This document shows, one piece after another, positions 33,710-40,486 of a stretch of 42,464 nucleotides of DNA. Position numbers and translations under genes: made by a program. This stretch comes from Verrucomicrobiota bacterium. Lineage in GTDB: Bacteria > Verrucomicrobiota > Verrucomicrobiia > Verrucomicrobiales > DEV007. The stretch's first letter is position 1. Every line of letters starts with the position of its first letter. The notes under the pieces are model-generated. The model was not told where the DNA came from. It searched no databases and worked only from the letters and a program-made list of their open reading frames with translations. The stretch is taken from NCBI GenBank assembly GCA_018970725.1, contig JAGWVU010000043.1, positions 1-42,464 on the forward strand, given 5' to 3'.

Positions 33710-34996
33710 ATGCCCAATTTCGAGTATATCGCCCTCGACTCCCGTGGTCAGGAAACCACCGGAACCCTCAGCGCCCCCAACGAGGCGGAAGCCTATCAAA
33801 TGCTGCGCCGCGAAGGGCTCTACCCCACCAAGGTCGGGGAGGCCGGCAAGGGCGGGGTCGGTGCCACGGCCAAGCGCAAGGCCACCAAGGCGGCCAAGGG
33901 CGGCGGAAAGAAAAAGGGCGGCAAACCCGCCAAGGTGACCGGCAAGGTCGCGCCGAAAATCCTCATGCTCTTCACCCGGCAGCTCGCCACCTTGGTCGAT
34001 GCCGGGTTACCCCTTCTCAAGGGCCTCTCCGTCCTCGGGGAACAGGAGAGGAACAAGATCATGAACAGCGCCATCCACACGATGGCGGACAGTGTCCAAA
34101 CCGGGAGCACTTTCTCCGAGAGCTTGGGGCAACACCCGAAAATCTTCAACAAGCTCTACGTCAACATGGTCAAGGCCGGGGAACTCGGCGGCGTCCTTGA
34201 AGTCGTCCTCAACCGTCTCGCGGAATACCAGGAAAAGGCCCAGAAACTCAAGAACAAGGTCGTCGCCGCCATGGTCTACCCGATCATCGTCATGGTGATC
34301 GCCGTCGCCATCCTCATCTTCCTCCTCGCGTTCATCGTCCCCCAGTTCCAGAAGATCTTCGACGAAATGTTGCGCGGCAAGCCATTGCCCGCCATCACCC
34401 AGTTCGTCATCAATGCGAGTGACTTCGTCGGAAACAAATTCCCCTTCCTCATCATCGGCTTCGGCGTCCTCTTCGCCACTTGGAAGCTCGTCCAAATGAC
34501 CCCGGGCGGCCGGCGCTGGATCGACAGCGTGGCCCTCAAAATGCCGATCGTCGGCGGCGTCCAGCAAAAGACATCCATCGCCCGCTTCTCCCGCACCCTC
34601 GGCACCCTCGTCAGCAGCGGCGTGCCCATCCTCCAGGCGCTCAACATCACCCGGGATACCGCCGGAAACATCGTCGTGGCCGAGGCCATCGACAAAGTCC
34701 ACGAGGCGGTCCGGGAAGGGGAAACCATCGTCACCCCGCTCGAAGCCAGCAAGATCTTCCCGCCCATGGTGATCAGCATGGTCCAGGTCGGTGAGGAAAC
34801 CGGCCAGTTGCCCGACATGTTGATGAAGATCGCGGATGTTTACGACGACGAGGTCGATACCGCCGTCGCCGGGCTCACCGCCATGCTCGAACCCATCATG
34901 ATTGTCGGCCTGGCGCTCATCGTCGGCACCATCGTGCTCGCTCTTTTCCTTCCGCTCGTCAGCATCATCACGGCCATGAACGAAGGTCTCAACTGA
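33710..34996 (+). CDS. Inner-membrane platform protein (PilC/GspF-like)
   Basis: A 428-residue platform protein on which the assembly ATPases act. The short N-terminal GspF-like segment MPNFEYIALDSRGQE is followed by a 35-residue Lys/Gly-rich linker (about 46-80), which is unusual. Two GspF domains follow, each with the family pattern: FTRQLATLVDAGLPLLKGL and FSRTLGTLVSSGVPILQALN, and VKAGELGGVLEVVLNRLAEY and VQVGEETGQLPDMLMKIADV. Three membrane segments are seen near 195-220, 245-265 and 395-420. It lies 45 bases after the second ATPase gene and 20 before the pseudopilin gene, so the four genes form one operon. Confidence 0.94.
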   Translation: MPNFEYIALDSRGQETTGTLSAPNEAEAYQMLRREGLYPTKVGEAGKGGVGATAKRKATKAAKGGGKKKGGKPAKVTGKVAPKILMLFTRQLATLVDAGLPLLKGLSVLGEQERNKIMNSAIHTMADSVQTGSTFSESLGQHPKIFNKLYVNMVKAGELGGVLEVVLNRLAEYQEKAQKLKNKVVAAMVYPIIVMVIAVAILIFLLAFIVPQFQKIFDEMLRGKPLPAITQFVINASDFVGNKFPFLIIGFGVLFATWKLVQMTPGGRRWIDSVALKMPIVGGVQQKTSIARFSRTLGTLVSSGVPILQALNITRDTAGNIVVAEAIDKVHEAVREGETIVTPLEASKIFPPMVISMVQVGEETGQLPDMLMKIADVYDDEVDTAVAGLTAMLEPIMIVGLALIVGTIVLALFLPLVSIITAMNEGLN

Positions 34997-35016
34997 TCTT
35001 TCCCCCCCATCATCCC

Positions 35017-35586
35017 ATGCATCTTCCCTCTTCCTCGAAACGCCGCCCCGCGCCCCGCGGGTGGACCATGATCGAACTCCTCTTCGTCATGTCCATCATG
35101 ATCGGTCTGGCTGCCATCATGGCCGCCTCCATCGGTCCCGTCCAAGCCAACATGTCCCGGCAGCGCACCCGCGGCCTCATGAAAATGCTGGGCACCGGCC
35201 TCCAGCAGTTCCACGCGGAGTATGGTTCCTATCCGAAGTGCGACGACCTCAACCAAGGCGCCAACATCCTCTACCGGACTCTCTTCGGGGATTACAACGA
35301 GGACGGCAAACCGGACTGGAGCGCCACCGGCGGGAAGGACGACTCGGTGAAAACCTTCGTCGGAGACCTCAACCCCGGCGTGGTCGATCCCATCACAGGC
35401 TCAACCCAAAACGCCTTTGTCCGGATGGTGCAGAGCCGGTATGTCCTCGTGGATTCGTGGGGCACCCAGCTTTACTACGTGTCCGGGACCAAGGCGAAGC
35501 ACAACGCCACCTACGATCTCTGGAGCCTCGGGAGCGACCCGGACCCGTCCGACGCCAACGATTCCATGTGGATCAAGAACTGGTGA
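35017..35586 (+). CDS. Type II secretion-like pseudopilin (GspG-like)
   Basis: A 189-residue pseudopilin. The N-terminal 14 residues are basic (SSSKRRPAPRG), followed by the prepilin peptidase site and hydrophobic helix WTMIELLFVMSIMIGLAAIM. Position +1 after the glycine is Trp rather than the usual Phe, while the key Glu at +5 is kept. The C-terminal domain resembles the major pseudopilin: LQQFHAEYGSYPKCDDL, a Gly/Asp-rich loop, VLVDSWGTQLYYVS and YDLWSLGSDPDP. No other pseudopilin, prepilin peptidase or secretin gene is in the window. It is the last gene of the cluster and is followed by a strong terminator. Confidence 0.9.
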   Translation: MHLPSSSKRRPAPRGWTMIELLFVMSIMIGLAAIMAASIGPVQANMSRQRTRGLMKMLGTGLQQFHAEYGSYPKCDDLNQGANILYRTLFGDYNEDGKPDWSATGGKDDSVKTFVGDLNPGVVDPITGSTQNAFVRMVQSRYVLVDSWGTQLYYVSGTKAKHNATYDLWSLGSDPDPSDANDSMWIKNW

Positions 35587-36188: not shown

Positions 36189-38039
36189 ATGGACGAGGAG
36201 CTCGCAAGGCTGTTGGAATCAGCCAAAATTGACCGGGAAACGGCCACCAGAATCGACCGTTTGCCCCCCGGGGCATTTTGCATCCACAAAAGTTGGGGGG
36301 TGGGCAAGGTGGAGTCCTGGGACCTCCTCGGTGACCGCATGGTGATTCACTTCGAGGGCAAGCCCGGGCACTCCATGAAATTGCAGTTCGCCGGCACCGC
36401 CCTCGCCCCGCTCCCGCCCGATCACATCCTCGCCCTCCGCTTCGAAGACCGCGCCTCACTGAGTCGCATGGCGGAAAAAGATCCGGTCGAACTTGTGCGG
36501 CTCGTCCTCGCCAGCCACCAGAACGAAATGTCGCTCGACAAATTCGATGAAGTGGTCAAGGGCACCATCGTTCCCGAGGGACGCTACAAGTCCTGGTGGG
36601 ATGGCGCCAAGAAGCAACTCCGCGGGGACCGCCGCTTCGTGATCCCCTCCAAACGCAACCAGCCGATGCAGCTGCGGCGGGACGACCAATGCCCCGCCGA
36701 GGACATGGTCCGCGAGGTGCTCCAAAGCCCGGATCTCCGGACCAAGGCCAAAGCGGTGGAAGCCATCCTCCGCAACGCCGATGCCTTCGAATCCCCCGCG
36801 ACCCAGTTGCAGCCGGTCGTCGATGACCTCAGCGAGTCGGCCCAGAAAGGAGCCAAGCTCCTCCTCTCCCAAGCCATCGAACTGCTCCTCGCCCGCGCCG
36901 ATCTCCTCCAGCGCTTCCCCGAACTCACCTTGACTCCGGGGCACTCCCAGTTGGCCGATCTTTTGCGCATGGAACGCGAGGCGCTCGGGGAAACCCTCCG
37001 CAGCCTCGGAGTCTCCCGCCAACGCCAGGCGCTCGAGGCTTTCCCCCATGCCTTCGGTGAGACCTGGACCGCCGTCGTCTTCGGCATGCTCAACACCGCC
37101 GGCATTCGCGGCGTCGGTGAACTCGCCAAATTCGTCGTCGACCAAGGTCGCGGCACCGAACTCGATGACTTCCTCCGGGCCGGTCTTCAGCAGCGGGCCC
37201 ACACGTCCGATCTCATCGCCTGGATCTGCAAAGAACGCAAGGGACGCGCCGCCAACGTGGTCGATCTGGAATTGGCCGCCGTCATCATGAACAGCTTGGA
37301 GCGCGATCACTTCGGCGACGAAACCCGGCGCACCAATCGTTTGGCGGAAACTCTCCAGGAAGATCCCGAACTCATCCCCGACCTCATCGAAAACGCGGAC
37401 ATCAACATGGTCCGCGGCTTCGCCCGGCGCCTCATGATGAGCCCCGCGTTCGACCAGCTCAGCGTCAAATCCCTCCTCGCCCGGATCGTCAAACGCCACC
37501 CGCAGATCCAGGACCTCATCACCGGCAACCAGGCCGACGAGCAGGAGCAAACCATCATCGTTTCCTGGGAGAGTCTCGAGTCCAAACAAAAGGAACTCGA
37601 AACCCTCGTCAACGTCCTCCAACCCAAGAACCGGGAGGAAATCAAAATCGCCCGCGAATACGGCGACCTCCGGGAGAACTTCGAATACAAGGCGGCCAAA
37701 CAACAGGAAGCCGTTCTCCGGCGCCAGCGCGAGGAAATGGAACGCGATCTCCATCGCGCCCGGGGAAGCGACTTCTCCTCCCCGGATGTTTCCAAATGTT
37801 CCATCGGAACTTACGTCGATATCGAGGACGCCGCCGGTCACAAGGAAACCTTCTGCATCCTCGGCGCCTGGGACAGCGATCCGCTGAAGAGCATCATCGC
37901 CTACACCACCGGAGCCGGGCAGGCCCTGATCGGAAAAGCCGTCGGTGAAAGCGCGGACCTCCCCACCGAAAACGCGGACGAGACCCGGCGGGTCACCATC
38001 AAGGGCATCCGTCCCTACCGCACCTCGGAAAAGGGCTGA
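36189..38039 (+). CDS. greA: Transcription elongation factor GreA with long N-terminal extension
   Basis: A 616-residue composite. The C-terminal 160 residues are GreA: a coiled coil with the acidic tip DLREN (493-497), preceded by KIAREYG and followed by NFEYKAAKQQEAVLRRQ, then the GreA/GreB C-terminal domain (GTYVDIEDAAG, IIAYTTGAGQALIGKAVGES). GreA rescues backtracked RNA polymerase by stimulating transcript cleavage. Residues 25-75 (GAFCIHKSWGVGKVESWDLL and following) resemble a Tudor-like CarD/TRCF RNA-polymerase-binding fold. Residues about 80-450 are helical with no named domain. Normal GreA is about 160 residues, but chlamydial GreA is about 700, so the extension is a PVC trait. I chose the ATG at 36189, just before this conserved part. 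Confidence 0.9.
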   Translation: MDEELARLLESAKIDRETATRIDRLPPGAFCIHKSWGVGKVESWDLLGDRMVIHFEGKPGHSMKLQFAGTALAPLPPDHILALRFEDRASLSRMAEKDPVELVRLVLASHQNEMSLDKFDEVVKGTIVPEGRYKSWWDGAKKQLRGDRRFVIPSKRNQPMQLRRDDQCPAEDMVREVLQSPDLRTKAKAVEAILRNADAFESPATQLQPVVDDLSESAQKGAKLLLSQAIELLLARADLLQRFPELTLTPGHSQLADLLRMEREALGETLRSLGVSRQRQALEAFPHAFGETWTAVVFGMLNTAGIRGVGELAKFVVDQGRGTELDDFLRAGLQQRAHTSDLIAWICKERKGRAANVVDLELAAVIMNSLERDHFGDETRRTNRLAETLQEDPELIPDLIENADINMVRGFARRLMMSPAFDQLSVKSLLARIVKRHPQIQDLITGNQADEQEQTIIVSWESLESKQKELETLVNVLQPKNREEIKIAREYGDLRENFEYKAAKQQEAVLRRQREEMERDLHRARGSDFSSPDVSKCSIGTYVDIEDAAGHKETFCILGAWDSDPLKSIIAYTTGAGQALIGKAVGESADLPTENADETRRVTIKGIRPYRTSEKG

Positions 38040-38696: not shown

Positions 38697-38803
38697 GGAT
38701 GGAGTGTGGTTCCCATATCAAACCCATTTCATCCCGGGAAGCAAGCGGCGACCCTTTCCTTTCCCTTTGCGTTCGCTCCTCCCTGACCGAAATTCCCCGT
38801 CTC

Positions 38804-40486
38804 ATGCCAGAAACACCCGCCGTCCCCACCCTCGAACCCCGGGATTTCATCCGCGAGATCGTCCTCGAGGATCTGAAGTCGGGCAAACACGACCACGTCG
38901 TCACCCGCTTCCCGCCCGAACCCAACGGTTACTTGCACATCGGCCATGCCAAGGCCTTCTGCCTGGATTTCGGTCTCGCCCTCGAAGTGCCGGGCAGCCG
39001 TTGCCATCTGCGCATGGACGACACCAACCCGGTCAAGGAGGACGTCGAATACGTGGAGTCGATCCAGGAAGATGTCCGCTGGATGGGGTTCGACTGGGGC
39101 CAGCACTTTTATTACGCCTCCGATTATTACGAGCAACTCCACGGCCATGCGGTGGAACTCATCGAGAAGGGCCTGGCTTATGTCGATGAACTCACGGCCG
39201 ACCAGATGCGCGAATTCCGCGGCACCCTGACCGAACCCGGCAAGGAAAGCCCCTTCCGCAACCGCACCGTCGCGGAAAACCTCGACCTTTTCGCCAAAAT
39301 GCGCGCCGGAGCCTTTGAAGAGGGAGCGGCCGTGCTCCGGGCCAAGATCGACATGGCCCATCCCAACGTGATCATGCGGGACCCGACGCTCTACCGCGTC
39401 CTCAAGACGCACCACCATCGCACCGGCGATGCCTGGTGCATCTACCCGATGTACGACTTCGCCCACCCTCTCTCGGATGCCATCGAGGGGATCACGCACT
39501 CGCTCTGCTCCCTCGAATTCGAGAACCATCGTCCGCTTTACGACTGGTTTGTCAGTCACTGTTCCGTCCCGGCCAGACCGCGCCAGATCGAGTTCGCCCG
39601 CCTCAACCTCACCTACACCGTGATGAGCAAGCGCAAACTCCAGCAACTCGTCGCGGAAAAGCTCGTCGACGGCTGGGATGATCCCCGCATGCCCACCCTG
39701 TCCGGTCTCCGCCGCCGCGGTTATACGCCGGCCGCCATCCGGAAATTCATCGAGACCATCGGACTGACCAAGTTCAACAGCCTCACCGATGTCGCCCTCC
39801 TCGAACATGCCATCCGCAACGACCTCAATGCCAGCGCGCCACGCGTCATGGCCGTGCTCGATCCCATCCGGGTCGTGATCACTTCCTATCCGCAGGACCA
39901 AACCGAGGAGATGGAAGCCCTCATCAACCCGGAAGATCCCTCCCTCGGCTCCCGCATCGTCCCCTTCTCCAGGGAACTCTACATCGAGCGGGATGACTTC
40001 ATGGAAAACGCCCCGAAAAACTACTTCCGCCTCACCGTCGGTCAGGAAGTCAGGCTGCGCTATGGCTATTGGATCAAATGCGAGGAAGTCGTCAAGGACG
40101 CCGGCGGAAACATCGTCGAACTCCGTTGCTCCCACGACCCCGCCACCCGCGGCGGCGAAAATCCCCCGGACGGGCGCAAGGTCAAGGGAACCATCCACTG
40201 GGTCTCCGCCGCCCATGCCCTCCCCGCCGAGGTCCGCCTCTATGACCGCCTCTTCACCGTGGAACAAGTCGGCGATGACTTCACCTCACTGCTCAACCCG
40301 GATTCCTTGAAGGTCATCCCCAACGCCATGCTCGAGCCCGGCCTCGCCCGGGCTCAACCGGGCGACAGGGTGCAATTCGAGCGGATCGGCTACTTTTGCG
40401 TCGATCCCAAGCTCAGCAAACCGGGCCACCCGGTCTTCAACCGCACCGTGGCCCTCAAGGATACTTGGGCGAAAGTCAAGGCCTGA
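38804..40486 (+). CDS. glnS: Glutamine--tRNA ligase
   Basis: GlnRS attaches glutamine to tRNA-Gln. The 560-residue protein has the usual bacterial length (E. coli 554). The class I signature is [14 protein letters not shown] (37-50, HIGH at 45-48), and the KMSKS-like motif is VMSKRK (273-278). [41 protein letters not shown] and [10 protein letters not shown] are glutaminyl-specific. The beta-barrel anticodon-binding domain fills the last 220 residues. Its presence means glutaminyl-tRNA need not depend on the amidotransferase GatCAB. The ATG at 38804 gives a normal leader ([20 protein letters not shown]); upstream in-frame codons overlap the divergent gene's promoter. The rtcB-like pseudogene follows 67 bases downstream. 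Confidence 0.97.

What the first reader, a model, noticed from the sequence alone, without database searches (positions are those of the whole stretch)
36189..38039. GreA carries a possible CarD/TRCF-like domain and a 370-residue helical body
Ordinary GreA is about 160 residues. Here the GreA module, with an intact DLREN tip, is the tail of a 616-residue protein. Residues 25-75 read like the Tudor-like RNA-polymerase-binding fold of CarD and Mfd, followed by about 370 helical residues. Chlamydial GreA is also very long, so this may be an ancestral PVC factor that binds polymerase at two places and joins cleavage-factor and CarD/Mfd-type functions in one chain. The CarD-like part is my reading of pattern, not an established annotation.
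Basis: partly seen in the sequence, partly recalled or inferred. Interest (0 to 1): 0.62.

Follow-up and report, generated by a model that had tools for sequence, protein, structure and literature searches.

The report
GreA fused to polymerase-docking Tudor domain
This bacterium's RNA-cleavage factor GreA is the tail of a much longer protein, shared across its phylum, whose front carries a small Tudor-type domain most like the polymerase-binding tail of the PcrA/UvrD helicase, so the factor probably grips RNA polymerase at a second site.

Summary
Window 36189-38039 (+) encodes 616 residues with an intact GreA module at 457-607 and tip DLREN. It is no chance fusion: 282 of 288 genomes of the phylum match it, and in 78 of 79 genomes the best GreA_GreB_N match lies in an open frame of at least 621 residues.

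[quoted passage not shown] 6 of the 8 best Foldseek rows are UvrD/PcrA; hhalign 93.6% against PcrA/UvrD, 84.1% against Mfd. Most PcrA polymerase-contact positions are kept; K712 is not. The helical body looks like an alpha-solenoid.

New here: Pfam's PcrA/UvrD Tudor is over cut-off in none of 77 genome scans of this phylum, while RpoB carries a helicase-interaction-like hairpin (own: VVDGSTGEIL) in an insert aligned to E. coli residue 991 instead of SI1. Tudor signature and hairpin are both lost or remade in one clade (one event; no correlation elsewhere). I propose that GreA docks on that hairpin. Binding is untested.

The parts
36189..38039 (+). long greA gene, 616-residue protein plus stop
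   Evidence: single full match in own genome; 282 of 288 phylum genomes match
36189..36260 (+). residues 1-24: two short N-terminal helices; in 10 of 10 fetched loci from other classes an in-frame ATG lies 93-104 residues further up
   Evidence: model; start candidates (L039-L044, L046-L048, L050)
36264..36428 (+). residues 26-80: Tudor-like barrel, nearest the PcrA/UvrD C-terminal domain
   Evidence: AlphaFold2 of residues 20-84 pLDDT 91.0, pTM 0.77; Foldseek; hhalign; Pfam scan of 58 members
36285..36377 (+). residues H33, W36, F55, H61, M63, aligned to PcrA H681, W684, F705, K712, L714
   Evidence: conservation; PcrA residues and mutants from PMC5397179 passages
36429..37526 (+). residues 81-446: alpha-helical body, solenoid-like (HEAT/ARM-like shape only; no assigned family)
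   Evidence: model; VIA-align Z 7-9 to unrelated helical-repeat proteins over 166-450
37527..37553 (+). residues 447-455: low-confidence, probably flexible linker
   Evidence: pLDDT below 50 at 447-453
37557..37763 (+). residues 457-525: GreA coiled-coil (secondary-channel) domain
   Evidence: PF03449
37665..37679 (+). residues 493-497: DLREN tip
37794..38009 (+). residues 536-607: GreA C-terminal domain
   Evidence: PF01272; VIA Z 16.2 to GreA 9a7t_B over 450-608

Best explanation
This is a transcript-cleavage factor that holds RNA polymerase at two places. The C-terminal GreA module enters the secondary channel and stimulates cleavage of backtracked RNA as in any GreA. The N-terminal domain is a Tudor-like RNAP-interaction domain nearest the PcrA/UvrD C-terminal type. 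It most likely docks on the beta subunit, best candidate being the TGE-like beta-hairpin ('helicase interaction motif', HIM) that most of this phylum carries in the insert aligned to E. coli residue 991 (SI2, by recall). The helical body and linker bridge the two sites, so the factor can stay tethered while the coiled coil moves in and out. Shown here: domain order, predicted fold, phylum-wide conservation, conserved binding-face positions, no PcrA/UvrD Tudor over the Pfam cut-off in this phylum, presence and position of the hairpin, joint loss or remaking of Tudor signature and hairpin in one clade. Inferred: that the Tudor binds RNAP at all, that it binds this hairpin, and the tether function.
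For: Fold: residues 20-84 at pLDDT 91.0, pTM 0.77. Of Foldseek's first 8 rows 6 are UvrD/PcrA Tudors (7egt_B E 7.6e-3, 9dqs, 5dma, and 7egs, a UvrD Tudor solved with the RNAP lobe); ranks 3 and 5 are SGF29. Sequence: a profile of 58 N-domains finds 9dqs, 7egt and 5dma among 6 PDB hits. hhalign gives 93.6%, score 35.3, against 11 PcrA/UvrD Tudors (best of 100 column shuffles 16.8), and 84.1%, score 29.5, against 27 Mfd RIDs (best shuffle 22.7). Binding face in 58 non-redundant members: H at PcrA H681 in 48, W or F at W684 in 58, F at F705 in 58, M/L/V at L714 in 58. Partner: E. coli HIM segment 301-325 scores 54 against own RpoB fragment 957-981 (11 of 25 identical), next best window 13, best of 1000 shuffled segments 36. 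PcrA_UvrD_tudor is over cut-off in 0 of 38 relatives and 0 of 39 phylum genomes, controls 8 of 14. Co-occurrence in 72 genomes with both proteins: the best window for the E. coli HIM segment is the hairpin in 53 of 54 with Tudor score 56 bits or more (scores 24-54; the 54th is cut by a contig end) and 0 of 18 with 22 bits or less. Of 254 RpoB windows the hairpin ranks first for partial correlation with Tudor divergence (r 0.42).
Against: No binding data. The 18 genomes with low Tudor score form one clade (support 1.0), so the joint loss is one event; within the 54 others the correlation is absent (rank 221 of 254). The Tudor profile was built from 58 members that include none of that clade, and the score split was drawn after seeing the gap. 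In 4 of the 18 (G016, G019, G025, G028) the best window does overlap the remade loop, at 12-22; G055 has a window scoring 25 elsewhere. The published strict motif fits only 3 of 73 RpoBs (own, G257, G265), most having N for D; 37 of the 54 keep [TS]G[ED]. 7 of 73 RpoBs do have a [TS]G[ED] in the SI1 region, none in the first 30. PcrA K712 is His or Gln in the 58, and His 42, Tyr 7, Gln 5 in the 54. W36 is W in 17 of the 18 low-score genomes too, F55 is F in 11. The window's domain reaches no Pfam cut-off. VIA Z ties UvrD 7.2, CarD 6.8, Mfd 6.4 and a myosin SH3 7.5.
Confidence: 0.47

Rival explanations
1. The Tudor binds RNAP but at the beta1 site used by Mfd and CarD, so the protein combines cleavage-factor and CarD/Mfd-type docking.
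For: hhalign 84.1% to Mfd RID with score above all 100 shuffles; CarD 4l5g and Mfd 6x26 within one Z unit of UvrD; 7 of 58 members hit CarD_TRCF_RID, best E 0.0082.
Against: PcrA/UvrD Tudor is closer by Foldseek order, PDB profile hits and hhalign; the Mfd alignment is gapped across strands 2-3; the genome keeps a separate Mfd-like frame that would compete for beta1.
Confidence: 0.21
2. The N-terminal Tudor and helical body bind something other than RNAP (nucleic acid, a ribosomal protein, UvrB or another repair factor), coupling transcript cleavage to that machine.
For: Tudor/SH3/KOW folds bind many partners; PcrA's Tudor also binds UvrB through the same motif (PMC8318588 passages); Spt4/5 entries and histone-reader Tudors also match.
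Against: PcrA-type binding-face positions are among the most conserved; joint loss with an RpoB hairpin.
Confidence: 0.21
3. The N-terminal region is a structural extension with no second RNAP contact, and the correlation with the RpoB hairpin is coincidence on one long branch.
For: The loss is a single clade; correlation is absent inside the other 54 genomes; the TGE-like loop may just be how such inserts fold.
Against: Near-invariant residues across the 58 and 129 aligned members; hairpin ranks first of 254 windows, and the Tudor is the best of 10 GreA windows for it.
Confidence: 0.11

Closest known systems
NCBIfam NF004969 (PRK06330) 'transcript cleavage factor/unknown domain fusion protein', 718 positions (recalled as chlamydial)
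   Same: Full-length match 25-591, E 3.5e-46; residues 1-449 alone E 3e-20 over 25-222
   Different: 158 bits against a cut-off of 697; the match begins at model position 137, so the model is longer in front; its extra domain is called 'unknown'
NCBIfam NF011309 (PRK14720) GreA, 906 positions (recalled as spirochaetal)
   Same: Match 28-609, E 1.7e-56; residues 1-449 alone E 6.5e-21 over 28-188
   Different: 192 bits against a cut-off of 714; the match begins at model position 309
PcrA/UvrD C-terminal Tudor domain (PDB 5dma, 7egs, 7egt, 9dqs; PF21196)
   Same: Fold; H-x-x-W-G-x-G motif; aromatic and hydrophobic binding-face positions
   Different: At the front of a cleavage factor instead of the end of a helicase; K712 replaced; below Pfam cut-off
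DUF3553 (PF12073), function unknown
   Same: Commonest weak Pfam match: 36 of 58 members, best E 6e-5; window domain E 0.014
   Different: Below cut-off for the window's domain; the family has no known function to borrow
CarD / Mfd RID (PF02559)
   Same: Tudor-like fold, weaker profile similarity
   Different: Second-best by profile and Foldseek; no Pfam match for the window protein
Canonical GreA (1grj, 9a7t)
   Same: Residues 450-608, VIA Z 16.2, 28% identity; tip
   Different: Canonical GreA (157 residues in 9a7t_B) has no Tudor or helical body

Membership tests
GreA/GreB transcript cleavage factors | GreA_GreB_N and GreA_GreB Pfam domains above gathering score | tested here: met
   56.4 and 40.8 bits against 24.5 and 26.9
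GreA/GreB transcript cleavage factors | Acidic tip of the coiled coil (D and E of DLREN) | tested here: met
   124 of 129 aligned proteins keep D493 and E496, other 5 are gaps
GreA/GreB transcript cleavage factors | Stimulates RNA cleavage by RNAP | not testable with these tools
   needs biochemistry
NF004969 / NF011309 long GreA equivalogs | Curated equivalog score | tested here: not met
   158 against 697 and 192 against 714 bits
NF004969 / NF011309 long GreA equivalogs | Homology outside the GreA module | tested here: met
   residues 1-449 alone E 3e-20 and 6.5e-21, over 25-222 and 28-188
PcrA/UvrD Tudor (PF21196) | Pfam gathering score | tested here: not met
   no match for the window domain; 15 of 58 members match at E up to 10, best 0.0055
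PcrA/UvrD Tudor (PF21196) | Tudor fold comparable to 5dma, 7egs, 7egt, 9dqs | tested here: met
   predicted model; other Tudor/SH3 folds score alike
PcrA/UvrD Tudor (PF21196) | RNAP-binding residues H681, W684, K712, L714 | tested here: inconclusive
   H in 48 of 58, W or F in 58, hydrophobic in 58; K712 is His in 53 and Gln in 5, Tyr in 7 further genomes
PcrA/UvrD Tudor (PF21196) | Binds RNAP through the HIM hairpin | not testable with these tools
   only co-occurrence
CarD/TRCF RID (PF02559) | Pfam gathering score | tested here: not met
   no match for the window protein; 7 of 58 members, best E 0.0082
CarD/TRCF RID (PF02559) | Tudor-like fold comparable to CarD and Mfd structures | tested here: inconclusive
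   VIA Z 6.8 CarD and 6.4 Mfd, tied with UvrD and with SH3 folds
CarD/TRCF RID (PF02559) | Binds beta1 | not testable with these tools
   needs binding assays

The most novel reading that the evidence does not exclude
In this phylum the polymerase docking site that PcrA/UvrD uses elsewhere has been handed to the cleavage factor. UvrD has no recognisable Tudor domain, GreA carries a Tudor of that type, and the TGE-like hairpin it grips has moved from the SI1 insert to the insert at E. coli residue 991 of the beta subunit. The factor that undoes backtracking is thus tethered at the kind of site where, in other bacteria, a helicase reported to backtrack polymerase docks. Hairpin and Tudor were then lost or remade together in one clade.
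Probability: 0.32. Interest if true: 0.72.

Novelty: new variant of a known kind. Interest (0 to 1): 0.55.

Why it matters
One NCBI family title calls the front of long GreA proteins an 'unknown domain'. Naming it as a PcrA/UvrD-type polymerase-docking Tudor gives it a testable function in a whole phylum, and probably in the relatives covered by the two NCBIfam models. If the docking site is shared, bacteria have swapped which factor (a backtracking helicase or an anti-backtracking cleavage factor) occupies the same kind of motif on RNA polymerase. It would also give a role to a lineage-specific beta insert.

Tried and rejected
CarD as the closest relative: rejected as first choice, kept as second. 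An assembly or frame artefact: rejected. Specific fold for the helical body: only generic helical-repeat matches, Z 7-9, which the tool calls common. Weak Pfam hits XPC-binding and Spectrin on the body were taken as chance. tblastn with residues 1-449 found nothing in plasmids. The first genome-contig scan found nothing. Promoter scan found none; 6 terminator-like sites against 2.8 (sd 1.8) in shuffles. The two weak PF21196 matches (E 0.0026 and 0.0040, below cut-off) were read: G027's is a Tudor-like tail on an ORF that does not look like UvrD, G017's looks spurious. Correlation inside the Tudor-intact set failed. Literature searches: (no paper); in their listings I saw no paper describing this domain. 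I read passages of PMC8318588 and part 1 of its discussion, and passages of PMC5397179; PMC5906684, PMC2474590 and PMC3444138 were searched by term only. Subscription papers are not held, so absence in print is not shown.

Dropped rows: 3 of 30 Mfd loci read on the wrong strand (L148, L157, L160) left out, 27 used. UvrD Tudors: E. coli plus 10 of the 30 records. Of 80 loci (best 80 of 172 kept by the tool), 79 gave a frame, 72 complete, 31 used for the model at under 78% identity. G030 (RpoB, no GreA match) and G280 (no RpoB match) are not in the 72 pairs. The 58 and 129 sets include none of families f17, f22, f27, f28 and none of the Tyr61 genomes. In one search the frames taken for L218 and L229 were the wrong ones; chose frames by profile. 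Where one search set the first residue of a protein to M, that was by script.

Full report
Observation. The 616-residue ORF at 36189-38039 (+) is real. Residues 457-607 are GreA by Pfam and by fold (VIA Z 16.2 to GreA 9a7t_B over 450-608). The tip is intact. It is the only GreA_GreB_N match above cut-off in the genome (a second at E 0.81 is below it).

How general it is. 282 of 288 genomes of the phylum match the protein; most of the rows that were listed run over nearly the whole length, the list being capped. A census by GreA_GreB_N found it in 78 of 79 genomes, and the 78 best matches sit in open frames of 621 to 921 residues; three genomes have a second, shorter copy. Relatives with record titles (best 80 of 172 confirmed, from 175 candidate stretches) are all titled as Verrucomicrobiota of some kind; the nearest is 88% identical over residues 1-240. 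So the long form is the usual GreA of this phylum. In 10 of 10 fetched loci from other classes an in-frame ATG lies 93-104 residues further up. Two NCBIfam long-GreA models match through the N-terminal part: residues 1-449 alone give E 6.5e-21 (over 28-188) and 3e-20 (over 25-222); residues 120-449 alone only 5.1e-5. The full-length scores are far below the equivalog cut-offs, so I call it a relative, not a member.

The N-terminal domain. AlphaFold2 with 32 sequences gave mean pLDDT 87.3 for the whole protein; pTM is 0.50, so relative domain placement is not to be trusted. Residues 20-84 alone gave 91.0 and pTM 0.77: four strands, a short helix, a last strand. No Foldseek hit reaches E 0.001; of the first 8 rows, 6 are UvrD/PcrA Tudors (7egt_B E 7.6e-3, 9dqs, 5dma, 7egs) and 2 are SGF29; CdnL, CarD and Mfd come at ranks 25, 29 and 33. 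VIA-align ties them all with general SH3 folds, so fold alone does not decide. Sequence does better. A profile of 58 non-redundant members finds three UvrD/PcrA Tudor entries among six weak PDB hits (E 0.081, 0.34, 0.54). Of 58 members, 36 hit DUF3553, 15 PcrA_UvrD_tudor and 7 CarD_TRCF_RID, best E 6e-5, 0.0055 and 0.0082. hhalign gave 93.6% (score 35.3) against 11 UvrD/PcrA Tudors and 84.1% (29.5) against 27 Mfd RIDs; best scores of 100 column shuffles were 16.8 and 22.7; PcrA against Mfd gave 34%. The domain sits in the polymerase-docking Tudor group, nearest PcrA/UvrD among families of known function.

The binding face. In PcrA, H681, W684, K712 and L714 were mutated, and in the full-length protein K712A and L714A greatly reduced RNAP binding; W684 and F705 correspond to cage residues (PMC5397179, passages). 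By alignment these are H33, W36, H61, M63 and F55 here; the numbering rests on the 5dma match and on counting back from the end of a PcrA orthologue. In 58 members: H 48, W or F 58, F 58, M/L/V 58; the lysine is His in 53 and Gln in 5. In the 54 Tudor-intact genomes used below: H33 in 39, W or F in 54, F in 54, position 61 His 42, Tyr 7, Gln 5.

A candidate partner. PcrA's Tudor grips a hairpin with consensus [VIL]DxxTGE[VIL][VILT] in the beta SI1 insert, and its authors note some RpoBs with no clear motif there (PMC8318588, passages and discussion part 1). In this phylum [TS]G[ED] is absent from the SI1 region in 66 of 73 RpoBs (30 of 30 in the first set); six of the seven exceptions belong to family f2. 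But own RpoB has VVDGSTGEILIPANKKITKTLLRKL in the insert aligned to E. coli residue 991. E. coli HIM segment 301-325 scores 54 there, the next best window 13, the best of 1000 shuffled segments 36. The strict published motif fits 3 of 73 (own, G257, G265); most others have N for D. The two best UvrD-helicase matches of the genome end without a Tudor motif; PF21196 is over cut-off in 0 of 38 relatives and 0 of 39 phylum genomes against 8 of 14 controls, with two sub-cut-off matches that do not look like UvrD. The two sets overlap, so 77 scans are fewer than 77 genomes.

Co-occurrence. For 72 genomes I had both proteins. 54 have a Tudor score of 56 bits or more, and the best window for the E. 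coli HIM segment is the hairpin in 53 of them (scores 24-54), the remaining one being cut by a contig end. 18 have 22 bits or less, and in none is it the intact hairpin; in 4 the best window overlaps the remade loop at scores 12-22, and G055 scores 25 elsewhere. [TS]G[ED] is kept in 37 of the 54 and occurs in 1 of the 18, in an altered, longer loop. Of 254 RpoB windows the hairpin ranks first in partial correlation with Tudor divergence (r 0.42), and of ten GreA windows the Tudor is its best partner. Against this: the 18 are one clade (support 1.0), so this is one event; inside the 54 the correlation is absent (rank 221); the Tudor profile held no member of the clade. Two details fit but prove nothing. 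G046, sister to the rest of that clade, keeps a weak Tudor (22 bits) and part of the hairpin. In one subgroup of family f2, all 9 genomes have the hairpin changed to VT[RK], and 7 of the 9, and no other of the 72, have Tyr in place of H61.

Mechanism and verdict. The likeliest reading is a two-point cleavage factor: GreA in the secondary channel, Tudor on the beta subunit, helical body and linker (447-455) between. Domain identity I hold at about 0.9, RNAP docking at about 0.7, this particular hairpin at about 0.47. The long architecture is already in databases as a fusion with an unknown domain, so this is a new variant of a known kind with one new testable idea.

Noticed in passing
RpoB, locus L181 (G000:C4), fragment residues 957-981: Exact helicase-interaction-motif hairpin in the beta insert aligned to E. 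coli residue 991, not in SI1 where other bacteria have it; related hairpins through the phylum outside one clade.
   Followed up: yes
own UvrD-like ORFs, loci L199 and L200: The two best UvrD-helicase matches end without a recognisable C-terminal Tudor domain.
   Followed up: partly
L217, L219-L226, L228 (families f17, f22, f27): Long GreA of one clade keeps length and GreA module but has a strongly diverged N-terminal region (W36 mostly kept, other motif residues mostly lost); of the ten tips readable, eight read DFREN and two (L219, L228) DLREN.
   Followed up: partly
L230, L231, L232: Three genomes of family f6 (G010, G075, G060) have an additional shorter GreA/GreB-like ORF (253, 228, 386 aa).
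   Followed up: no
L215 (G027), around 1501-1581: A weak PcrA_UvrD_tudor match forms the C-terminal tail of an ORF that looks like a restriction-type helicase rather than UvrD (read from sequence).
   Followed up: no
RpoB SI1 region of G069, G137, G184, G193, G196, G286: The family f2 subgroup with the altered 991-site hairpin has TGE/TGD/SGD strings in SI1 in six of nine genomes; meaning unknown.
   Followed up: no
G030: A genome rated 99% complete with RpoB but no GreA match; probably an assembly gap.
   Followed up: no
window 33710-35586: GspF-like inner-membrane protein and pilin-like ORF upstream of greA (read from sequence, not searched).
   Followed up: no
window 38699-40486: Glutaminyl-tRNA synthetase-like ORF downstream of greA (read from sequence, not searched).
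   Followed up: no
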